A DNA stretch of 64,000 bases, taken from Prorocentrum cordatum (taxonomy: Eukaryota > Sar > Dinophyceae > Prorocentrales > Prorocentraceae). The notes below the pieces were generated by a model. The model did not search any database. It had not been told where the DNA came from and saw only the letters and a program-made list of their open reading frames with translations. This document shows, one piece after another, positions 1-32,200 of this stretch. The position numbers were made by a program, and so were the translations under genes. The stretch spans positions 84,890 through 148,889 of the forward strand of contig CAUYUJ010015685.1 in NCBI GenBank assembly GCA_963575745.1, written 5' to 3'. Each line of letters begins with the position of its first letter. Position 1 is the first letter of the stretch.

Positions 1-1428
1 TGCGTGTTCGGCATTTCCAGACAAATGGATAATGCGCACACAACCTTTATGCTGGATGCCGACAATCCTGAGACTGAGAGTGCGTCGTTGTACCTCTCAG
101 ATTCCTCAGTGGCAACAGCAGCAACAGCAGCCAGGGCCGTCGATTTCTCAGCTACGAACGAGGAGTTCGATGAGTGGTTGCAGTACAGGGATCACCTCAC
201 GAATGAGGGGTTGCAGGACATCGCCCTTCATTCGTATCTGACGCTGACGAGACGCACCACCCGCGAGCAGTATAAGAGCATACGTGATGAGTATGCCAAC
301 TGGCGGGAGGAGCGGGGCGCTCATGCTCAGAACGTGTCGTACTTCCAGGACATCGACATGGCACGTATGGTCGAAGGCAGGCTGGGTGCCAGCGTAGTGC
401 GGGGAAACCCGCCAGGGAGTACAAGTGAATCGCGGGGAAACCCGCCAGATGGCACAGCTGGCACTTCAGAAACAATGCACATCAAGCAACCGAGTAAGAC
501 TTTCTTGGAGGATGGTGGAAACTCTATCCTCATCGATGTAGGCTCGAAGATCAACATAATGGGAGAAATCACGAGCCGCAAGTTTGTCCAGGCTGCTGAG
601 GCACATGGCCGTTCTTGTACGTTCGAACCCCGTTCTCGTCTGAACATCAACGGGGTGGGCGAAGGGTCGGCCCCAGCGGATACCGTAGGCACCTTCAGTA
701 TTGTCTGCGAGTACCAGGGCTCGACCCAGCTCGATTCGTACAAGACGAACATTGTGTCAGGCTGTGGCAAAGACCTGCCAGCCATCCTCGGCCTCGATAG
801 TATGCAGGACAAGCGCACTATTATTGTGCTCGAGCGAGGCCAGGAGAAGCTGATATTCCCTGGAAAAGGACAGGTCAAGATGGAGCTCCCCGAGGGCTCC
901 AAGATCATGCCGACGACGAAGCTGCCATCAGGGCATCTGTCGATCAGGTGTGATCGATTTGGAGCTGCGGGGCAACCCGCCTCGAGCTCAAGCAGCACGT
1001 CATTTCAGACGGTGCTGACGGGCGAGCCGACCCCGGCGCAGGAGCGCAAACAATTGCAGGGAAACCTGCCTCAGGGGTTGATGGAGACGCTCGCCAAAGC
1101 TATGATGAGAGGCGATAGCGTCGACGATCTTGAGACGTTCGATTGCTTCGTAGCCAGGACACTGGCCCAGCATGGTGGAAGTGTACCCATGGACGCTGCA
1201 CGGTCCCGCCGGAAGATAGTGATGGGGTACACGAACCGTGAGCTGCAGACAGTCAGCGACGCGAGGACCAAAGGCGTGCTGAAGCAGCTGATGGATAATC
1301 CATCCATGCTGGCGGCATCTGCGGAGCAATCCGCCTCTGAAGCCACGGCGCGCTGCAGTGCTGAGCTCCAGCATCTGAGGGGGGCCCAGATGCTGGCAGA
1401 CATTGCAGGCGCATCTTCTTTATCTTGA
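1..1428 (+). CDS. Retropepsin-like (Gag/protease) ORF, 5' partial
   Basis: The frame is open at the window edge, so the true start lies upstream. The first 150 or so codons are polar. A retropepsin-like fold follows from about residue 170: the flap-side strand with ILIDVGSKINIMG (aspartate codon 535-537), then LPAILGLDSM near residue 263, a FPGKG turn, and the family signature LPSGHL...CDRF near residue 310. The family would process the retroelement polyprotein. The active-site triplet reads D-V-G-S instead of D-T/S-G, so catalysis is doubtful. The tail is Ala/Ser/Gln-rich and ends at TGA 1426-1428, but the same frame resumes 40 bases later. I am confident of the family and unsure whether it is expressed. 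Confidence 0.65.
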   Translation, partial: CVFGISRQMDNAHTTFMLDADNPETESASLYLSDSSVATAATAARAVDFSATNEEFDEWLQYRDHLTNEGLQDIALHSYLTLTRRTTREQYKSIRDEYANWREERGAHAQNVSYFQDIDMARMVEGRLGASVVRGNPPGSTSESRGNPPDGTAGTSETMHIKQPSKTFLEDGGNSILIDVGSKINIMGEITSRKFVQAAEAHGRSCTFEPRSRLNINGVGEGSAPADTVGTFSIVCEYQGSTQLDSYKTNIVSGCGKDLPAILGLDSMQDKRTIIVLERGQEKLIFPGKGQVKMELPEGSKIMPTTKLPSGHLSIRCDRFGAAGQPASSSSSTSFQTVLTGEPTPAQERKQLQGNLPQGLMETLAKAMMRGDSVDDLETFDCFVARTLAQHGGSVPMDAARSRRKIVMGYTNRELQTVSDARTKGVLKQLMDNPSMLAASAEQSASEATARCSAELQHLRGAQMLADIAGASSLS

Positions 1429-2820
1429 AGATGGCAGGGCGACGCCGCCCACTAGTCGTCTTGCCTGATGGCCGAAAGGCCAGGGGGTAACAAGGACAGC
1501 GGGGTGACCTGCCTTAGCAAAAGAGCTTTTGTCATTGAAGATACGAGAGAGGCTTGCGCCGACCTCCGCACCCGAGGTTATATCTGTGATCGTATTTCCT
1601 ACAATGAGCTTATGACGAGTGTGGGCACAGATTACCTGGGTGCGTTGATCAGTGGAGATTACACTCTCATATGGATTAGTACCCCGGGTGACTGGTATGT
1701 ACGAACTCCAGGGAAGAGAGTGGCTCCACGTTGGTCACGTATCCAAAACCTTTTGATAAAAGCCAGGAAGCTCCGTATGAAAATCTTAATATTTGGTCCC
1801 ACAGGATATGTTTGGAAGTTATCTCCAGTACGTGATACGCTGGAAGATCTTAAGTTGTCAGTGATACGGATGCGTTTGTGTCATTCCGGTATTCGGTTCA
1901 ATATGCAAGACAGTACACCGAAGGGTACTTATATGCAGGTGACTACATCAATACCGATTAACTCTAAGCTGTGGGCATGTACGTGCAAATTGGCGATACC
2001 ACAACATGTGTTGGATTGGTACGGCCAAACGGTACGGCATGCTGAATGGCGAGCTCAGACACGTACTACACTCATCCGTCATCTTAACGACAAAATCCTG
2101 GGAAACACCACCACGCACGGAAACGTGCCTATATACCTGAGCACCTATACACGTACGGACCACAACATCCATCACTACGTGACGACCAGCAAGGGAGGAC
2201 CGAAATGGTCTGATGTTATCCGACGTGTAACAATTAACCCGGATACCAATGCGGTTATACAGGATATCGCAGTAGCCGATCAACCAACAGGATATGATTG
2301 GCATGCACCACTACCTGCAGGGGTTGCCAACATCAGCACACGGTTGTATTGGCAACCCGAGGAAGCGGTCTTGCTCGGAAACGAGCCTACTCAATCACCA
2401 CAGAAACCTAGACGCGTCATCATAGATGACTGTTCTCTCCCCCTCCCGACTCTGGCGATTGACGCATGTGCCCACTCAACCGCGACGATGGGCACACAGA
2501 CCGGCGAACAAGACGAGCAAGTCTTACCTACGGAATCGCGTATCAAGCAAAAGGAAAGGCTCAAGGCCGAAAAGGAAGCAGGCATCAAGCCTCGCCGCAT
2601 CAAAAAGCACGTTGAAGACGGAAGCGACGATTGCGGCGATGACTTGTCAGGACTCGGACAGGATCTTATGGCGACCTGGAGCACTGACGTCCCGACTGAG
2701 CTGATAAGCTCCGATGAGGATGATGACCTGTTCCTTACCCTCCCCACATCTATGCCCGACACACACGCTGACATATACAGCATAGTCACTACTCTATGCT
2801 ATGGTCATAACAACTGCGTG

Positions 2821-3370
2821 GACATGTTGGAGCTTTGTGGCGGTGAGGCTGGCATTTCAGAGCTTGCCTTCTCAAGGGGACTCTCCTCAGGAGGCAACTT
2901 AGACAAGGCCACGTGTGTCGACCTGGGAGACCCCTCGGTGCAGCGGTCTGTAGATCACTACTTCGCAATATGCTACGTACGAGTTGCCATACTACAACCC
3001 AGTTGCCGCACCACAGGACCACCATCCTACTACAACTACAAAATCAATCACAATACTTGGGAACCGCACCACACATAAGATTTACCACACATAACTTACC
3101 GTGGTAAACTTGCTGTTGCTCAAGATGATGCACGGAGGTGGTTTATACGCGAGCAACCTACAGGAACATGGGTGGATGACATTTCCCCATGGAAGGAACT
3201 TGCCAACCGACCGCACATCACAACCGGACGCATTGATCAGTGTGCGACGGGACTCAAAGATACGGCTGGTGACTATATTAAGAAGCCGACAAATATCACC
3301 AGCAACGACGAGACGATTCTAAAACCTTTTGAGCGACTCAAATGCAACGGTCAGCATGTGCACGCACAAC
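2821..3370 (+). other. Cytosine-methyltransferase-like domain inside the copia-like ORF
   Basis: D-M-L-E-L-C-G-G-E at 2821-2847 resembles the SAM-binding motif I of C5 methyltransferases (normally D-L-F-x-G-x-G-G). A motif IV-like stretch QPSCRTTGPP lies at 2995-3024, with the candidate catalytic Cys codon at 3004-3006 and a P-S-C order where C5 enzymes have P-P-C. Downstream, past the stop at 3076-3078, the family blocks GKLAVAQDDARRWF.REQP, a DQCATGLKD motif and KKPTNITSN keep the same frame. Substrate and activity are unknown. Similarity is to motifs only, so a degenerate Rossmann fold without methyl transfer is possible. Confidence 0.5.
3076..3078 (+). other. In-frame TAA inside the methyltransferase-like domain
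   Basis: The codon before the stop ends ...EPHHT and the codon after starts DLPHITYRGKLAVAQ, in the same frame. Family-specific blocks lie on both sides, so the TAA is a point nonsense change, not a frameshift or deletion. Confidence 0.75.
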
Positions 3371-4236
3371 CGTGCAACAGAGAGCTTTCACTGGCACAAA
3401 AATACACTCGACGATTGCAGTCTGCCTTTGTGGAAGCCGTCTATTTGGCAAAAGCCATTGACACTGCGCGCGGAAACGCGCCTACACGCACCGCACATGC
3501 TTACCCTGCTGACCTTCCTGATCAAGCCGAACCGGGAGAAGGCGTGAGACGCGTCGGCGATCGTATCATCCCAAAAGTGGCTACATGCCCAGCATGCATC
3601 GACAATGTCCGAAAGGACAGTCCTAGCCACAACAGAGACCCTACGCAGTGTAAGTATCATGATTCTATCTCTGTATATTGGCCATGTCCCGCATGCCAAA
3701 GGGATCTTACGAGAAACAAAGGTGTTAAGAACCACCTCGATACCGAACCTGGTAAATGTCGTTTTGCTGAACCGTTTAAACTTCCAGACGATCATGACCC
3801 CGAAGGTAAGACTGTGCCAGCTTGGTGGAAACCCTTACCCAAACCTGGTGAGGGCCAAGCTTCAGCGTCAGGTGGCCGCCAAGGCGCGCACGCCAGGCCA
3901 CCGCGACCACGATCCTTCGGGAACGCTGATCCGACATCTGGTGCCAGCAGTTACGACACGCTACGAGACGCTCCCGAGCGTGGAAACACGCCTTCTGCGT
4001 CTTCTGGCGAACCGCCACAGGTAGCGGCCCGCCGCGGTCGCCTGCAAGGCGTACCACCACCACCAGATGCAGTTGAGGAAGGAGACCGACTGCGGAGAGC
4101 TACAAGGAACCCTCTTGCCTCCACCGGCTCGGGGGCTCCACGACTACCCGACTGGGCGAGATTTGATATCCAACGCAGTCTGCAAAATCTCCGTAGTCGT
4201 GAACCTCATGTCGTTAAAAAGGACGGTGGACCGCGT

Positions 4237-4282
4237 CTCTCCTCCTCTCCTCCTCTCCCCCTCCCCCCCTCCTCCTCCGCGC
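4237..4282 (+). repeat. Polypyrimidine tract preceding 90-bp array 1
   Basis: Almost pure C/T with repeated CTCCTC blocks, ending where the first 90-bp unit starts. A similar tract precedes array 2 at 7655-7718 in the same orientation. Confidence 0.7.
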
Positions 4283-5440
4283 GCCCATTTCGGCGCGCCC
4301 CTCGCGCGTTTAGTGGCCCCGTAAGGAGCTCCGCCGAAGGCCCCAATGGGCGTGCCCGCATGCGCCCCGCGCGCCCATCTCGGCACGCCCCCTCGCACGT
4401 TTCGTAGCCCCATAAGGGGGCTCCACCGAAGGTCCCAGTGGATGTGCCCGCGCGCGCCCCGCACGCCCATATCATCGCGCCCTTCATGTTTCGTGGCCCC
4501 ATACGGGGCCCCACCGAAGGTCTCAGTGGGCGTGCCCGCATGCGTCCCGCACGCCCATTTCGGCACACCCCTCGCGCGTTTCGTGGCCCCGTAGGGAGCT
4601 CCCTCGAAGGTCCCAGTGGGTGTGCCCGCGTGCGTCCCGCACGCCCATTTCGGCGCACCCCTCGCGCGTTTCGTGGCCCCATAGGGAGCTCCGCCGAAGG
4701 TCCCAGTGGGTGTGCCCGCATGCGTCCCGCACACCCATTTCGGCATACTCTTCACACGTTTCGTGGCCCCATAGGGAGCTCCACCGAAGGTCCCAGTGGG
4801 TGTGCCCGCATGCGTCCCGCACACCCATTTCGGCACACCCCTCGCACGTTTCGTGGCTCCATAGGGAGCCCCACCGAAGGTCCCAGTGGGTGTGCCCGCA
4901 TGCGTCACGCACGCTCATTTCGGCACACCCTCACACGTTTCGTGGCCCCATAGGGAGCCCCACCGAAGGTCCCAGTGGGTGTGCCCGCATGCGTCCCGCA
5001 CACACATTTAGGCACGCCCTCGCACGTTTCGTGGCCCCATATGGAGCTCCACCGAAGGTCCCTGTGGGTGTGCCCGCATGCGTCCCGCGCACCCATTTCG
5101 GTACACCCTTCACGCGTTTCGTGGCCCCATATGGAGCTCCACCGAAGGTCCGAGCGGGTGTGCCCGCATTCGTCCCGCACACCCATTTCGGCACACCCCT
5201 CACACGTTTCGTGGCCCCATAGGGAGCTCCACCGAAGGTCTCAGTGGGTGTGCCCGCATGCGTCCCGCACACCCATGTCGGCGCACCCCTCGCACGTTTC
5301 GTGGCCCCATACGGAGCTCCACCGAAGGTCCGAGTGGGTGAGCCCGCATTCGCCCCGCACGCCCATTTCGGCACACCCTTCACGCGTTTCGTGGCCCCAT
5401 AGGGAGCTCCACCGAAGGTCCCCGTGGCGCAGTCCGCACG
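4283..5440 (+). repeat. 90-bp minisatellite array 1, about 13 units
   Basis: Units start around CCCATTTCGGCACACCCCTC, run through CGTTTCGTGGCCCCATAGGG and GAGCTCCACCGAAGGTCCCA, and end GTGTGCCCGCATGCGTCCCG. Starts recur every 90 bases (4711, 4801, 4891 for the TGTGCCCGCA landmark). A few units have one- or two-base indels or diverged ends. Since 90 is a multiple of three and stops are rare, several frames stay open on both strands. I regard those ORFs as by-products of the period. The last unit fades at about 5440. Confidence 0.95.
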
Positions 5441-7654: not shown

Positions 7655-9499
7655 CGCGTTCTCCTCTCGTCTCCTCTCCTCTCCTCTCCTCCTCCCCCTC
7701 CTCCCTCCTCCCTCCTCCATTTCGGCACACCCCTCACACGTTTCGTGGCCCCATAGGGAGCTCCGCCGGAGGCCCCAGTGCTGCCGCCCGCATGCGTCAC
7801 GCACACCCAATTCGGCACACCCCTCACACGTTTCGCGGCCCCATAGGAGCTCCGCCGAAGGCCCCAGTGCTGCCGCCCGCATGCGTCACGCACACCCAAT
7901 TCGGCACACCCCTCACACGCCCGTGTTTCGGGATAGGAGCTCCGCCGAAGGCCCCAGTGCTGCCGCCCGCATGCGTCACGCACACCCAATTCGGCACACC
8001 CCTCACACGTTTCGTGGCCCCATAGGGAGCTCCGCCGAAGGCCCCAGTGCTGCCGCCCGCATGCGTCACGCACACCCAATTCGGCACACCCCTCACACGT
8101 TTCGTGGCCCCATAGGGAGCTCCGCCGAAGGCCCCAGTGCTGCCGCCCGCATGCGTCCCGCACACCCAATTCGGCACACCCCTCACACGTTTCGTGGCCC
8201 CATAGGGAGCTCCACCGAAGGCCCCAGTGCTGCCGCCCGCATGCGTCCCGCACACCCAATTCGGCACACCCCTCACACGTTTCGTGGCCCCATAGGGAGC
8301 TCCACCGAAGGCCCCAGTGCTGCCGCCCGCATGCGTCACGCACACCCAATTCGGCACACCCCTCACACGTTTCGTGGCCCCATAGGGAGCTCCACCGAAG
8401 GCCCCAGTGCTGCCGCCCGCATGCGTCACGCACGCCCAATTCGGCACACCCCTCACACGTTTCGTGGCCCCATAGGGAGCTCCGCCGAAGGCCCCAGTGC
8501 TGCCGCCCGCATGCGTCACGCACACCCAATTCGGCACACCCCTCACACGTTTCGTGGCCCCATAGGGAGCTCCACCGAAGGCCCCAGTGCTGCCGCCCGC
8601 ATGCGTCACGCACACCCATTTCGGCACACCCCTCACACGTTTCGTGGCCCCATAGGGAGCTCCGCCGAAGGCCCCAGTGCTGCCGCCCGCATGCGTCACG
8701 CACACCCAATTCGGCACACCCCTCACACGTTTCGTGGCCCCATAGGGAGCTCCGCCGAAGGCCCCAGTGCTGCCGCCCGCATGCGTCACGCACACCCAAT
8801 TCGGCACACCCCTCACACGTTTCGTGGCCCCAAAGGGAGCTCCACCGAAGGTCCCGGTCGGTGTGCCCGCATGCGTCCCGCTCATTCATTTCGGCACACC
8901 CCTCACACGTTTCGTGGCCCCATAGGGAGCTCCACAGAAGGCCCCAGTGCTGCCGCCCGCATGCGTCCCGCACGCCCATTTCGGCACACCCCTCACGCGT
9001 TTCGTGGCCCCATAGGGAGCTCCGCCGAAGGTCCCAGTGGGTGTGCCCGCATGCGTCCCGCACACCCATTTCGGCATACTCTTCACACGTTTCGTGGCCC
9101 CATAGGGAGCTCCACCGAAGGCCCCAGTGGGTGTGCCCGCATGCGTCCCGCACACCCATTTCGGCACACCCCTCACGCGTTTCGTGACCCCTCACACGTT
9201 TCGTGGTCCCATAGGGAGCTCCGCCGAAGGCCCCAGTGGGTGTGCCCGCATGCGTCCCGCACACTTAATTCGGCACACTCCTCGCACGTTTCGTGGCTTT
9301 ATAGGGGGCTCCACCGAAGGTCTCAGTGGGTGTGCCCGCATGCGTCCCGCACACCCATTTCGGCACACCCCTCACGCGTTTCGTGGCCCCATAGGGAGCT
9401 TCACCGAAGGTCCCAGTGGGTGTGCCCGCATGCGTCCCGCACACCCATTTCGGCACACCCCTCACACGTTTCGTGGCCCCATATGGAGCGCCACCGAAT
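7655..9499 (+). repeat. 90-bp minisatellite array 2 with 5' polypyrimidine tract, about 20 units
   Basis: A CTCCTC tract (7655-7718) leads into about 20 units with strict 90-base spacing, for example the TTCGTGGCCC landmark at 8101, 8191 and 8281. Two subtypes are present. The left 13 or so units carry GTGCTGCCGCCCGCATGCGT and CCCAATTCGG. The right-hand units carry GTGGGTGTGCCCGCATGCGT and CCCATTTCGG as in array 1. Units near 7840-7945 have a one-base loss and a scrambled segment. One unit near 9170-9200 is truncated and restarted. Subtype blocks indicate local amplification. Confidence 0.95.
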
Positions 9500-11374: not shown

Positions 11375-11998
11375 TTCCCAGAACACCATTCCCAGGCCAC
11401 ATTTTGAATGTCTGGAGCCAACTGTAGGCCACTTCGTGTTCTTCGTGTTCCCAGAACACCACTCCCAGGCCACATTTTGAATGCCCGGAGCCAACTGTAG
11501 GCCACTTCGTGTTCTTCGTGTTCCCAGAACACCATTGCCAGGCCCCATTTTGAATGCCCGGGGCCAACTGTAGGCCACTTCGTGTTCTTCGTGTTCCCAG
11601 AACACCATTCCCAGACCACATTTTGAATGCCCGGAGCCAACTGTTGGCCACTTCGTGTTCTTCGTGTTCCCAGAACACCATTGCCAGGCCACATTTTGAA
11701 TGCCCGGGGCCAACTGTAGGCCACTTCGTGTTCTTCGTGTTCCCAGAACACTGTTCCCAGGCCACATTTTGAATGCCCGGAGCCAACTATAGGCAAGTTC
11801 GTGTTCTTCGTGTTCCCAGAACACCATTCCCAGGGCACAATTTGAATGCCCGGAGCCAACTGCAGGCCACTTCGTGTTCTTCGTGTTCCCAGAACACCAT
11901 ACCCGTGCAATATTTTGATTGCCCGGAGCCAACTGTGGGCCACTTTGTGATCTTCGTGTTCCCAAAACACTTGTCTTGTGCCATACTTTGAGTGCCCG
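11375..11998 (+). repeat. 73-bp minisatellite, about 9 units
   Basis: The landmark ATTTTGAATG recurs at 11401, 11474, 11547, 11620, 11693, 11766 and then more diverged at 11839, 11912 and 11985, always 73 bases apart. Each unit contains CCCAGAACACCATTCCCAGG and CCACTTCGTGTTCTTCGTGT. 73 is not a multiple of three, so open frames here rotate and have no coding meaning. Confidence 0.95.
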
Positions 11999-12585
11999 AG
12001 CTGAGGCAGGCTGAGGCCGAGGCAGGCTGAGGCCGAGGCAGGCTGAGGCTGAGGCTAAGGCAGGCCGAGGCAGGCTGAGGCTGAGGCTGAGGCAGGCTGA
12101 GGCTGAGGCAGGCTGAGGCTGAGGCTGACGCAGGCTGAGGCCGAGGCAGGCTGAGGCTGAGGCTGAGGCAGGCTGAGGCTGAGGCAGGCTGAGGAGGCTG
12201 AGCTGAGGCTGAGGCTGACGCTGAGGCTGAGGCAGGCTGAGGCTGAGGCTGAGGCCGAGGCAAGCTGAGGCTGACGCTGAGGCAAGCCGAGGCAGGCTGA
12301 GGCTGAGGCTGAAGCTGAGGCTGAGGCTGAGGCTGTGGCTGAGGCTGAGGCAAGCTGCGGCTGAGGCAGGCCGAGGCTGAGGCTGAGGCAGGCTGAGGCT
12401 GAGGCTGAGGCCGAGGCAGGCTGAGGCTGAGGCTGAGTCCGAGGCAAGCCGAGGCAGGCTGAGGCTGAGGCTGAGGCTGATGCTGAGGCAGGCTGAGGCT
12501 GAGACAGGCTGAGGCTGAGGCTGAGGCTGAGGCTGAGGCTGAGGCTGAGGCAGGCTGAGGCTGAGGCTGCGGCAGGCTGAGGCTA
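11999..12585 (+). repeat. GAGGCT / GAGGCAGGCT short tandem array
   Basis: About 590 bases built from GAGGCT hexamers with interspersed GAGGCAGGCT decamers. Translations are Ser-Ala or Gln-Pro repeats, a consequence of the repeat. Confidence 0.95.
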
Positions 12586-12589
12586 AGGT

Positions 12590-21890: not shown

Positions 21891-22392
21891 ACCCGCCGTT
21901 GCTAGGGCGAAGTCAAGACAAATGATTCTTCCCCTTCCGCCCGTCCGGCGGTGGCCCGCGGTGTCCCGTGGTGTCCCGTGGTGTCCGCCGTTGCTAGGGC
22001 GAAATCAGGACAAATGATTCTCCCCCGCCCTCCCGTCCGTCCGTCCGTCCGTCCGTCCGGCGGTGGCTCGCAGTGTCCCGCGGTGTCCCGTGTCCCGTGA
22101 TGTCCCGTGGTGTCCCTTGATGTCCTGTGGTGTCCCGTTGAGTGAGATCGATAGTGAGATCGATAGTGAGATCGATAGTCAGATCGATACTGAGATCGAT
22201 GTGGTGCCCCGAGGTGTCCCGTGGTGTCCTATGGTGTCCCGTTGAGTGAGATCGATAGTGAGATCGATAGTGAGATCGACAGGGGTCCCGTGGCGTCCCG
22301 TGGTGTCCCGTTGAGTGAGATCGGTAGTGAGATCGATCGTGAGATCGATACTGAGATCGATGTGGTGCCCCGAGGTGCCCCGTGGTGTCGCG
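21891..22392 (+). repeat. Compound GTGTCCCGTG / GTGAGATCGATA array, left part
   Basis: Two copies of a CCGTTGCTAGGGCGAA..GACAAATGATTC block (21895 and 21987) lead into irregular tandem 10-mers (GTGTCCCGTG) and 12-mers (GTGAGATCGATA). The same array, in the same orientation, resumes at 31703, so the DNA between is inserted. Any frames here encode Arg-Ser-His-Tyr repeats without meaning. Confidence 0.9.
22381..22392 (+). repeat. Candidate LINE target-site duplication, left copy
   Basis: CGTGGTGTCGCG is identical to 31703-31714. Array units normally read GTGTCCCG, so the shared GTCGCG variant on both sides supports a duplicated target site. Confidence 0.65.
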
Positions 22393-28330: not shown

Positions 28331-28409
28331 AATCCAGCGGCTCTTGCACCAGCGGCAGGCTCACCAAGGCACCGCCGTTGGGTCGGCACATGTGTAGCCT
28401 TCGGGATGC

Positions 28410-29611
28410 TTGTGGCGCGAGGGGGAGCTGTGGGTGACAGGCATCCTGAGCCCGCGCTCAACCAGATCAAAGGGGACGAGTGCGCCGCCGCCGTTGGTCA
28501 AGAAAGGAGCGCGGACCTGGGGCGAGGCGCAGCGTGACAAGCTGCTCTACGCGAACCGCCTAGTCACCCACGCCGTGGATGACGCGACCAACCTGGTCTA
28601 CCAGAAGGCGGTGCACGAGTTCCTGGTGGACGTCGAGAGGAACCAGCTGGACTTCGACACCTTCGAGGCGAGGGGCCAGGCGCTGGCGGACTACATCTCC
28701 GACGTGTGCAACGTTCGGCAGCTGGGCTTCGGGCGGGCCAACATGCTGTTCAACGGTTTCATGCGCGTCTTTCAGGACCACCGGGGCCGGCTTCCGACGT
28801 CGGCCAGGGCACTGAGGTCGCGGCAGAAGCTGGGGCAGCTGGGCGAAGGCGCTCCTGTCCCCATGGAGGCGGTCGGTCTGGTCATCGGCAGGATGTTCCG
28901 CTCGGGTCGCTCGATCGAGGGCGCGGCGGTGCTCGCGCAGCTGAGCGGGTGGCTCAGGGAGCAGGGCTGGGGCCAACTCAGGGCTGAGGACGTGTCCGAG
29001 GGGCCTGGGGGCCAGCTGGCCTTCACCCTGGGCAGGCGCGAGAGAAGAGAGACGGTCAAGACGGGCGCGAACCAGGGCGTAGTGATCTCATGGCCGGTGA
29101 CAGCGGCCGTGGTGCGTGCTCTGCTGCGGGGCAGCGCCCGCAGGGACCTCGTCTTCCCCGTCTCGCAGGACAAGTTCAGGCGCGAGTGGCGCAAGGCGCT
29201 GGGCGACGAGGGGCTGGCTGGCACGGGCCCTCCGCATGCCGCGCGGCACTCGGGGGCTGCCAGCTTCGTGGCAGGAGGCGCAAGGGCAGTCGGCAGACGA
29301 CAGCAGCGCTGGCGCGCTACACGAAGACCCGCATGCTGATCAACCAGCCGGGCAAGATGGCGGACGAGCAGGCACGGGCAGGCGTAGGCTTTTGGGCGGC
29401 GCCTGCCGAGGCGCTGATTTCTTCCATCAAGGAGTCGCCCGCCGCCCAGACTCCGCTAGCGAAGCATCTGGTGGAGGAGCTGGAGCCGGCGCGCGGCCAG
29501 GAGGTCGAGCTCCCGAATTTCGAGGGGGGACGGGTGCTGACGACAGGCCGCCCTAGCACTGCCTCTCGCACCCGACACAGGCGCAAGTCGAGCGCCGCAC
29601 GAGAACCATGA
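28410..29611 (+). pseudogene. Tyrosine recombinase (integrase) domain, frameshifted before the catalytic Tyr
   Basis: Frame 0 (to 29339) includes an N-terminal core-binding-like part, then GWLREQGWGQLRAEDV with a candidate first Arg at 28956-28958, and box II PPHAARHSGA with His 29235-29237, Arg 29244-29246 and His 29247-29249. The frame then shifts near 29270, and frame 2 gives GSRQTTAALARYTKTRMLIN with the nucleophilic Tyr at 29318-29320. The family joins a circular DNA copy to the target. Conserved R-H-x-x-R-H-Y residues show recent ancestry from an active enzyme. A frameshift separates the Tyr, so this copy is inactive unless recoded. Confidence 0.8.
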
Positions 29612-30391: not shown

Positions 30392-30703
30392 GATGCGTTT
30401 CCGAGTTTCTTGCGGGCCCGTTTTGGCCTGGTTGCCAGATCAGGCACCGCTCAAGGTTTGGGCCCAAGGTGGCTTGGCCACGCCATCTAACGCCTCGCGG
30501 AGGGCCCCCCCCTCTAGGCGCGCTCACGGCACTCTCCTGGACGCGTCTGCTGCTGCGTCGGATGTTCTGGTGCCGTGGTTGAGTGTGCTCGTCGCTCCTG
30601 CTATCCTGTAGGGTTGTCGCTCCAGCTCCGCCTGCCCCCCTTCAGAGGTCCTCCCGGGCTCTCAGTGCAAAGCTGGCTAATTATAGAGGCGTTAATGTAA
30701 ATG
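30392..30703 (+). repeat. Terminal repeat B2
   Basis: Second copy of B, ending at the junction with the LINE. Differences from B1 include several transitions and small indels, so the copies have had time to diverge. Confidence 0.9.
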
Positions 30704-31702
30704 TATGAATGAGGAATGCCTAAGATCTTCCGCAAGCACCTGCAATGAAAAGCGTCCAACCTTGCTCTATCAATCTTTAGCAGCCGCAGAGAGTCCAAGG
30801 AGTAGAGGACCTTGCTCAACACGCAGCTGGTGTAAATTTGCAACTTCTTTGTCCTGCTGATTGCAGCATGCTTCCGAATCTTGCGCAGCTGTTGGAATGC
30901 ACCTTTCTCTTCGCCCAATCGTCGGTTCAGTTCATTTCCCACTCGCCCATCGTGTGTGATCAAGCCTCCCAAGTACACTGCTTCTTTAACTCTGGTGATG
31001 GGCTCCCGGGTCGGCCTCGTTACCACTTTGTCTGACGCCGCTGGCATCTGCAGAGTCTTGTCCCAGTTGAGCTCCAGGCCATATTTGCGTCCTTCCAAAA
31101 CGACGGCATTGAGCAGAGCTTGGCAATTTTCCCCATGCCTTGAAAGAAGCAACGTGTCATCTGCGTAAAGCACGTTTCGGGTAACCACATAGCCGTGTTC
31201 ATTTAGTAGCTGGAGATTGTGGAATACATCATGGAGCATAACACTTTGAACCATAATGAACAAGTACGGAGATAAAGGACAGCCCTGGGCTATACCAGCA
31301 GCCTGCCGCCTTTCCGTAGAGCAACCGCAATGATCAACTATGGTGAATAAGCGCTCCGAGTATATGCCTTTGGTCATGTTTACCGTCGGAGAAGGAATCC
31401 CGAAACGCAGCAACGCTGCACATAAGCATTCCAACTTCAATCTGTCGAACGTTTTTGCCCAATCAAGCAAGAGTATCGTAAAGCCCCCGGTGTTGTCCAC
31501 GTTGGCTGCGTCGATGATTCGCCTGATCAGCATGAGGGCGTCGGCCGTTCCCCGCCGAGGCCGGAAGCCGAATTGAGATGCTCGCATTCGGTCTTCAGCT
31601 CCTCCTCGCAGAAGCCTTTGGTGGAGCATCGAAGCCAGTGCCTTGTAGCCAACAGTCAACAGAGAAATTGGGCGGTAGTTGCTAGGCAGCGTTGCTAGGC
31701 AG
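30699..31702 (-). pseudogene. LINE reverse transcriptase, 5'-truncated (5' side of the split)
   Basis: The minus-strand frame is open from the array edge to the insertion. It starts near NYRPISLLTVGYK and shows FGFRPRRGTADAL, motif A LLDWAKTFDRL, motif B AQGCPLSPYLF, motif C YADDTLLL (plus-strand 31156-31167), and the C-terminal FHCRCLRKILGIPHSY. It then meets the recombinase element at AAAT. Catalytic aspartates are intact. The endonuclease and the N-terminal part are absent, as expected for 5' truncation during target-primed reverse transcription. Flanking array and a 12-bp repeat mark its ends. Confidence 0.88.
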
Positions 31703-32115
31703 CGTGGTGTCGCGTGGTGACCCAATATGTGAGATCGATAGTGAGATCGATAGAGAGATCGACAGGTGTCCCGAGGGGTCCCGGGGTGTCCCGTTGAGTG
31801 AGATCGGTAGTGAGATCGATAGTGGGATCGATAGTGAGATCGATATGGTATCCCGAGGTGTCCCGTGGTGTCCCGTGGTGTCCTATGGTGTCCCGTTGAG
31901 TGTGATCGATAGTGATATCGATAGTGAGACCGATAATGAGATCGAGAGGTGTCCCGCGGTGTCCCGTGGTGTCCCGTGGTGGCCCCCGTGGTGTCCCGTG
32001 GTGTCCCGTTGAGTGATATCAATAGTGAGATCGATAGTGAGATCGGCAAGTGTCCCGTGGTGTCCCGTGGCGTCCCGTGGTGTCCCGTTGAGTGAGATCG
32101 ATAGTAATATCGATT
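31703..32115 (+). repeat. Compound GTGTCCCGTG / GTGAGATCGATA array, right part
   Basis: Begins with CGTGGTGTCGCG (31703-31714), identical to 22381-22392, and continues with the same 10- and 12-base units as the left part. Confidence 0.9.
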
Positions 32116-32200
32116 GAGTCAAATGTTGGTTTCCCCCTTTCCCCCCCACAACTTCCTTATCACCCGAAGGGTGGTCGTATCTGTATATGTATGTATATCT

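What the first reader, a model, noticed from the sequence alone, without database searches (positions are those of the whole stretch)
399..3991. Eleven GNRA-tetraloop micro-hairpins with covarying stems inside one retroelement ORF
Seen: 14-nt modules, 5-bp stem plus GAAA/GCAA loop, at 399, 432, 967, 1056, 1321, 1469, 2115, 2373, 3468, 3606 and 3978. Nine different stem sequences all pair perfectly, and the loop is always GNRA on the sense strand. Random expectation for a perfect 5-bp stem with a GNRA loop in 4 kb is well below one. GNRA loops are established RNA-stabilising and receptor-docking motifs. Inference: either a swarm of minimal mobile insertions tolerated in frame, or RNA-level signals (packaging, recoding, protection) scattered through the genomic RNA. 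I know of no described family like this.
Basis: partly seen in the sequence, partly recalled or inferred. Interest (0 to 1): 0.92.

Follow-up and report, generated by a model that had tools for sequence, protein, structure and literature searches.

The report
Repeated tiny hairpins in coding sequence
A 4.2-kb stretch of protein-coding sequence, apparently part of a mobile element of a single-celled eukaryote, carries eleven copies of the same 14-letter hairpin design, always on the coding strand and with stems that differ yet still pair perfectly, which points to a small RNA module spread through the gene rather than to chance.

Summary
All eleven hairpins are at the stated coordinates: Watson-Crick 5-bp stems, nine GAAA and two GCAA loops, all on the + strand of 1-4234, none on the - strand. 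Shuffled sequence gives 0.15 on average (maximum 3 in 2,000), synonymous-codon shuffles 0.63 (maximum 4 in 1,000). Of 12 sense GNRA hairpins with at least 3 bp, 11 have 5 bp and none 6. Nine are one unit, GCnnG-G[A/C]AA-CnnGC, always followed by C; two are TGnCC-GAAA-GGnCA.

My reading: an in-frame cassette of about 15 nt, seen in this window only in this element, whose pairing is kept by selection on the sense RNA; most likely repeated binding sites for an element-encoded protein during packaging. Unit, strand bias and pairing are shown; insertion, selection and packaging are inferred. A selfish palindromic micro-insertion is the main rival.

The 'one ORF' is three frame-1 ORFs, and no profile confirmed a retroelement. 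No relatives were obtained: the protein database was off, the genome search did not complete (9 attempts), six contig scans found none. Presence/absence at single sites is untested; everything rests on one locus.

The parts
399..412 (+). type I hairpin, GAAA loop
   Evidence: codon phase nnG Cnn GGA AAC nnG CCn
432..445 (+). type I hairpin, GAAA loop, same stem as 399 (possible local duplicate)
967..980 (+). type I hairpin, GCAA loop
   Evidence: low predicted folding in context (stem probability 0.06-0.30)
1056..1069 (+). type I hairpin, GAAA loop
1321..1334 (+). type I hairpin, GCAA loop
   Evidence: stem probability 0.92, 0.12, 0.73 in 100, 200, 400 nt
1469..1482 (+). type II hairpin TGnCC-GAAA-GGnCA, overlapping the first ATG (1468) of the second frame-1 ORF
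2115..2128 (+). type I hairpin, GAAA loop
2373..2386 (+). type I hairpin, GAAA loop
3468..3481 (+). type I hairpin, GAAA loop
3606..3619 (+). type II hairpin, GAAA loop
3978..3991 (+). type I hairpin, GAAA loop
1153..1166 (+). possible further type I member, perfect stem, GACA loop (not GNRA), followed by C
   Evidence: not counted among the 11
1499..1512 (+). possible further type I member, GTGA loop, one G.U pair, followed by C
   Evidence: not counted among the 11
1..1428 (+). first frame-1 ORF, open at the window edge; residues about 170-270 look retropepsin-like by eye only
   Evidence: no Pfam match above cut-off
1468..3078 (+). second frame-1 ORF, 536 aa
   Evidence: no Pfam match above cut-off
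3172..4407 (+). third frame-1 ORF (frame open from 3079, GTG start at 3172); Cys/His-rich stretch; the element seems to end near 4234, where C/T-rich sequence and then 90-bp tandem repeats begin (end judged by eye)

Best explanation
The hairpins are copies of a discrete cassette of about 15 nt (14-nt hairpin plus one C in type I) that entered the coding sequence of this mobile-element-like gene several times without shifting the reading frame. They are kept as exactly 5-bp, G[A/C]AA-capped hairpins because the folded sense RNA does something for the element. The likeliest role is a set of repeated recognition sites for an element-encoded RNA-binding protein, acting together in RNP assembly or packaging. 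SHOWN: the repeated unit, strand specificity, the restriction to GNRA loops, exact stem length, stems that differ while pairing, predicted local folding for most copies. INFERRED: arrival by insertion, selection on the RNA fold, and the packaging role.
For: Strand: 11 sense, 0 antisense. Discreteness: sense GNRA hairpins in the element number 12 at 3 bp or more, 11 at 4, 11 at 5, 0 at 6. Hairpins with one non-Watson-Crick position are near the shuffled level (4 against 2.3 +/- 1.5; of the four, one is an offset reading of the 3468 copy and one is the look-alike 1499), so there is no graded or decayed tail. Pairing: among the 9 type I copies 3 of 5 pairs change and always on both sides, and 0 of 500 shuffles reach the covariation score; that 45 of 45 cells pair follows from how the copies were picked. 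Fixed frame: GC ends in 9 of 11 (these define type I), and a following C, not used in the definition, in 9 of 9 type I. Unit-like peptide: all 7 GAAA type I copies share one codon phase (P 0.0014 if phases were equally likely) and encode x-G-N-x-P. Folding: stem probability 0.85 or more for 10, 8 and 9 of 11 in 100-, 200- and 400-nt contexts. Specific to this element within the window: 0 sense hits in the 11 other long ORFs tested, and no GC-skeleton hairpin with a GNRA loop and a following C in the other 59.8 kb on either strand (one search list). For yeast Ty3 both UTRs and POL are reported to be needed for RNA localisation and packaging (PMC11381356, passage), so signals inside coding sequence have a precedent.
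Against: No relative was found, so neither insertion nor conservation is observed. No consistent target-site duplication. Allowing G.U pairs adds only one hairpin (1499) against about 0.9 in shuffles; RNA-level selection would tolerate more. (The eleven themselves were picked as Watson-Crick, so their lack of G.U is by definition.) 967 is predicted mostly unfolded in all three contexts; 1321 (0.12) and 3468 (0.53) are low at 200 nt. Non-GNRA hairpins can fold as well: 2698 reaches 0.96, and 1153 reaches 0.96, while 5 others are at 0.60 or below. Of the four shuffle measures of covariation, 30 of 500 and 63 of 500 shuffles reach the observed counts of double-change pairs and of pair types. No GAAA-receptor pair of motifs was found (TATGG 4 times, CCTAAG absent; motifs recalled). 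A minimal Ty1 helped in trans needs only 380 nt of the 5' end and 357 nt of the 3' end to transpose (PMC4974528, passage), so internal sites are not general. No Gag or RNA-binding domain was identified.
Confidence: 0.4

Rival explanations
1. Selfish palindromic micro-insertions: a minimal mobile hairpin, tolerated in frame in linkers, with no function for the element. Stem variety reflects many source copies, and perfect pairing reflects recent arrival or copying of one arm from the other.
For: Sharp, discrete unit with no partial forms; GC ends and a following C; shared codon phase and peptide; flanks of the 9 type I copies slightly richer in small/polar residues (one-sided p 0.016, but hydropathy p 0.32); allowing G.U adds only one hairpin, which fits DNA palindromes. 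Allomyces mitochondrial hairpins also lack flanking duplications, and an RNA intermediate was suggested for them (PMC2800124, passages).
Against: No unit with GNRA loop and following C in the remaining 59.8 kb (one search list); none on the antisense strand of the element; no decayed copies above the shuffled level; the loop is restricted to G[A/C]AA, which a mere palindrome would not need.
Confidence: 0.3
2. Fold-back copying during reverse transcription or repair makes the hairpins: a nascent strand snaps back and copies its own end, giving perfect arms around a constant tetraloop.
For: Would explain perfect Watson-Crick arms, paired variation without selection, and strand bias (inference; no call tests it).
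Against: Does not explain the recurring GC...GC-C frame, the exact 5-bp length or the restricted loop; perfect stems with other loops on the same strand are at most mildly above shuffles (4-nt 7 against 4.3; 3-nt 9 against 3.9).
Confidence: 0.12
3. A protein-level motif (x-G-N-x-P, for example polyprotein cleavage sites) that happens to be encoded by a hairpin.
For: 7 of 7 GAAA type I copies encode G-N-x-P in one phase; 5 further GN dipeptides in frame 1 are outside hairpins and none of those is G-N-x-P.
Against: Synonymous shuffles give only 0.63 hairpins on average; the codons on either side of GGA AAC are reverse complements in all 7 (sequence); the other four hairpins (967, 1321, 1469, 3606) do not encode the motif.
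Confidence: 0.07
4. Chance or assembly artefact.
For: Single locus; no independent copy seen.
Against: 11 against 0.15 expected, maximum 3 in 2,000 shuffles; nine different stems at irregular spacing do not look like an assembly duplication.
Confidence: 0.02

Closest known systems
Hairpin-forming mobile repeats of mitochondrial DNA (Allomyces double-hairpin elements, sponge RHE, yeast GC clusters)
   Same: Short palindromic units in many copies; Allomyces copies lack flanking duplications and an RNA route was suggested (PMC2800124, passages).
   Different: Those in the passages are organellar, the sponge ones largely in intergenic regions, and the sponge RHE keep the stem and vary the loop; here the stem varies and the loop is kept, in frame in coding sequence, on one strand. 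Double-hairpin elements carry two hairpins (by name); here there is one.
Coding palindromes of Nematomorpha mitochondrial genes (PMC6649704, abstract and section list)
   Same: Perfect inverted repeats inside translated genes.
   Different: Those are long (up to 284 bp) and both arms encode conserved protein; these are 14 nt with a nearly fixed tetraloop.
Dispersed RNA packaging signals of RNA viruses (PMC6281560, passages)
   Same: Many stem-loops spread through a genomic RNA, sequences varying around a shared recognition motif.
   Different: There the affinity for coat protein is the defining fact; here the unit is far more uniform (my judgement) and no binding protein is known.
Rickettsia palindromic elements (in-frame insertion recalled; only a search listing seen)
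   Same: Palindromic repeats inserted in frame in protein genes (recalled).
   Different: About ten times longer (recalled), bacterial.
Introner elements of dinoflagellates (PMC10666404, passages)
   Same: Inverted repeats spread through coding genes.
   Different: They are introns, found by searching for 8-20 nt inverted and 3-5 nt direct repeats near both ends; these are 14 nt, inside open frames and without consistent direct repeats.

Membership tests
Mobile mitochondrial-type hairpin element (DHE/RHE/GC cluster) | Discrete repeated palindromic unit | tested here: met
Mobile mitochondrial-type hairpin element (DHE/RHE/GC cluster) | Presence/absence variation between related copies (mobility) | not testable with these tools
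   no relatives obtained; genome search unanswered
Mobile mitochondrial-type hairpin element (DHE/RHE/GC cluster) | Organellar location | tested here: inconclusive
   the window holds a LINE-like reverse transcriptase ORF (PF00078) and long tandem arrays, which suggests nuclear DNA; no direct test
Dispersed RNA packaging signals | Multiple stem-loops with a shared loop motif on the sense strand | tested here: met
   11 sense, 0 antisense, G[A/C]AA loops
Dispersed RNA packaging signals | Specific binding by the coat/Gag protein | not testable with these tools
   needs a binding assay
GNRA tetraloop hairpins | GNRA loop on a paired stem in the RNA | tested here: met
   sequence; predicted stem probability 0.85 or more in context for 8 of 11 at 200 nt; not probed
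Introner elements | Intron with inverted and direct repeats at its ends | tested here: not met
   14-nt hairpins inside open frames; flank repeats not consistently above background
LTR retrotransposon | Recognisable protease, integrase and reverse transcriptase domains | tested here: inconclusive
   no Pfam family above cut-off in the three ORFs or pieces of them; retropepsin-like pattern by eye only; 5' end outside the window; single-sequence models too poor to use (pLDDT 32 and 34)

The most novel reading that the evidence does not exclude
A previously undescribed class of minimal (about 15-nt) hairpin cassette that multiplies in frame inside a nuclear mobile element's coding sequence and is held, by selection on the element's RNA, to one strict architecture (5-bp Watson-Crick stem with free inner pairs, G[A/C]AA loop, outer GC and a following C): in effect a repeated RNA address label inside a gene.
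Probability: 0.35. Interest if true: 0.85.

Novelty: new variant of a known kind. Interest (0 to 1): 0.68.

Why it matters
If the hairpins are RNA signals, this would be an unusually clear natural case of many uniform hairpins with different stems around one loop in a retroelement-like coding RNA, making it a ready test of whether dispersed RNA signals guide particle assembly in retrotransposons. If they are insertions, they would be very small mobile units, in frame in what looks like nuclear coding sequence. Either way the sharp design (exactly 5 bp, one strand, one loop type) makes a genome-wide test simple.

Tried and rejected
Chance and composition: rejected by dinucleotide and synonymous shuffles. 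General excess of hairpins: rejected as an explanation; only GNRA loops are strongly over-represented, though 3-nt loops are mildly so. GAAA 11-nt receptor docking: CCTAAG absent from 1-4234, TATGG present 4 times (motifs recalled). Target-site duplications: flank repeats not consistently above background for units of 13-17 nt; one site (967) shows a 5-nt flank repeat if the unit is taken as 17 nt. Known RNA family: none at gathering threshold in the window or at E up to 1 in 1-4300. Second copy of the element in the window: none beyond matches of the third ORF's tail to the tandem repeats. Relatives: none confirmed in viral contigs, genome contigs (25, 50) or phages by DNA (63); these are viral and prokaryotic collections, so the misses say little. 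Protein structure: single-sequence models of two pieces were too poor and no fold search was run on them. PDB sequence search: nothing convincing. A weak match of residues 51-85 of the first ORF to PF20915 (VPg, E 0.0007 on the fragment, below cut-off) was set aside as likely compositional, and one of the second ORF to PF19381 (E 0.0011, below cut-off) was not followed. Cytosine-methyltransferase capture, known from Symbiodinium retrotransposons (PMC5890265, start of abstract and one passage), came to mind for the end of the second ORF, but no Pfam profile matched that piece. Dinoflagellate spliced leader: no match with up to 3 mismatches. Ten paper searches showed nothing that describes this pattern in the rows listed (0 to 20 per search, of up to 292 papers found).
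Full report
CHECK OF THE OBSERVATION. All eleven 14-nt hairpins are at the stated positions with perfect Watson-Crick 5-bp stems; loops are GAAA (9) or GCAA (2), and there are nine different stems. In positions 1-4234 there are 11 on the + strand and 0 on the - strand. Two thousand dinucleotide-preserving shuffles give a mean of 0.15 and a maximum of 3; one thousand shuffles of synonymous codons give 0.63 and 4. The rest of the window (59.8 kb) has 6 and 4 on the two strands against a mean of 2.2 in 100 shuffles. Eleven other long ORFs, picked from the 33 (14,019 nt summed, two of them overlapping), have 0 sense and 3 antisense.

WHAT IS SPECIAL ABOUT THEM. The strong excess is limited to one kind of hairpin. 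For perfect 5-bp stems on the sense strand, non-GNRA tetraloops number 7 against a shuffled mean of 4.3, 3-nt loops 9 against 3.9 (the one other class above its shuffled maximum, 8), and loops of 5-8 nt 3-7 against about 4 (60 shuffles). GNRA hairpins in the element number 12 with at least 3 bp, 11 with 4, 11 with 5 and 0 with 6: the eleven stand apart as a discrete design with nothing in between. GNRA hairpins with one non-Watson-Crick position are near the shuffled level: 4 against 2.3 +/- 1.5, one of the four being an offset reading of the 3468 copy and one the G.U-bearing look-alike at 1499.

ANATOMY. Nine copies are type I, GCnnG-G[A/C]AA-CnnGC, followed by C in 9 of 9 and then by A or T in 9 of 9. 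The base before the stem is never G, so the outer position never pairs. Two copies are type II, TGnCC-GAAA-GGnCA, preceded by A and followed by G. In the nine type I copies three of five pairs vary, always on both sides; 0 of 500 shuffles reach the covariation score, though 30 of 500 reach the count of pairs with double changes and 63 of 500 the number of pair types. That all 45 cells pair, and that none is G.U, follows from picking perfect hairpins; the unbiased statement is that allowing G.U adds one hairpin (1499) against about 0.9 in shuffles. These are copies within one element, not homologous sites across species. The copies at 399 and 432 share stem, loop and the next three bases and may be one local duplication. 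Two look-alikes were not counted: 1153 (perfect stem, GACA loop) and 1499 (GTGA loop, one G.U pair), both followed by C. In the rest of the window no GC-skeleton hairpin has a GNRA loop and a following C, on either strand (one search list).

CODING CONTEXT. Frame 1 holds three ORFs separated by stops at 1426, 1453 and 3076. All seven GAAA type I copies lie in one codon phase and encode x-G-N-x-P; the two GCAA copies share another phase. The element's GC3 falls from 0.66 in the first ORF to 0.53 and 0.45 in the later stretches, yet hairpins occur in all three. Flanking residues of the type I copies are slightly richer in small/polar types (p 0.016) but not more hydrophilic (p 0.32). The 14-nt hairpin plus its C is 15 nt, which would leave the frame intact; this is the basis for calling it a cassette, and it is an inference. 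Flank repeats were not consistently above background.

FOLDING. Each hairpin alone has a predicted free energy of -6.2 to -9.3 kcal/mol. In context, mean stem probability is 0.85 or more for 10 of 11 (100 nt), 8 of 11 (200 nt) and 9 of 11 (400 nt); 967 is low in all three, 1321 and 3468 are low at 200 nt. Of the seven perfect hairpins with non-GNRA tetraloops, six were used as controls at 200 nt and one of them (2698) reaches 0.85; the seventh, 1153, also does.

WHAT THE HOST SEQUENCE IS. No Pfam family passed its cut-off in any of the three ORFs or pieces of them. By eye the first ORF has a retropepsin-like pattern (IDVGS...ILGLD), with the catalytic D[S/T]G reading DVG; this is recalled pattern knowledge, not a test. 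The window's G+C, 59.8% (base counts), is close to the 59.7% reported for Prorocentrum cordatum (PMC10666404, passages), and I suspect a dinoflagellate, but no tool named the organism and the spliced leader was not found.

MECHANISM. The repeated frame, shared peptide and absence of partial forms speak for arrival as a unit. The strict loop, strand and pairing speak for a function of the folded sense RNA. I therefore favour insertion followed by selection, with packaging or RNP assembly as the likeliest use, at 0.4. The rarity of G.U pairs and the lack of any identified binding protein keep the selfish-insertion rival close (0.3). No relative of the element could be found, so neither step has been observed.

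COMPARISON WITH WHAT IS KNOWN. Mitochondrial hairpin repeats share the short palindromic unit, but the sponge ones keep stems and vary loops (PMC2800124, passages). Nematomorpha coding palindromes are much longer (PMC6649704, abstract). Dispersed packaging signals share the many-site design (PMC6281560, passages). Yeast Ty1 helped in trans needs only its two ends to transpose (PMC4974528, passage), whereas Ty3 packaging is reported to need both UTRs and POL (PMC11381356, passage). Passages of PMC5910586 and PMC7218506 on organellar palindromes showed nothing closer. Ten paper searches listed nothing matching in the rows shown; the library is limited to open-licence papers.

Noticed in passing
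4277-5427 and 7717-9498: 90-bp tandem arrays; the 30-codon period keeps long frames open on both strands, giving ORFs of up to 756 aa that are probably spurious.
   Followed up: partly
30604-32118 (-): LINE-like reverse transcriptase ORF (PF00078, E 1.2e-31) overlapping 12-bp AGTGAGATCGAT arrays that also occur around 22141-22361.
   Followed up: partly
1-1425 versus 1468-4233: GC3 falls from 0.66 to 0.53 and 0.45 across the frame-1 stretches, as if the element were composite.
   Followed up: partly
1468-1482 and 3605-3619: Both type II hairpins overlap an ATG; the first is the start of the second ORF, the second is in another frame.
   Followed up: no
1-4234, sense strand: Perfect 5-bp stems with 3-nt loops number 9 against 3.9 in shuffles (maximum 8 of 60), a mild excess beside the GNRA one.
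   Followed up: no
28398-29336 (+): ORF that looks like a tyrosine recombinase by eye; no Pfam match up to E 0.1.
   Followed up: partly
11375-11970: 73-bp tandem array, about 8 copies, followed by a 6-bp GCTGAG array at 12000-12588.
   Followed up: no
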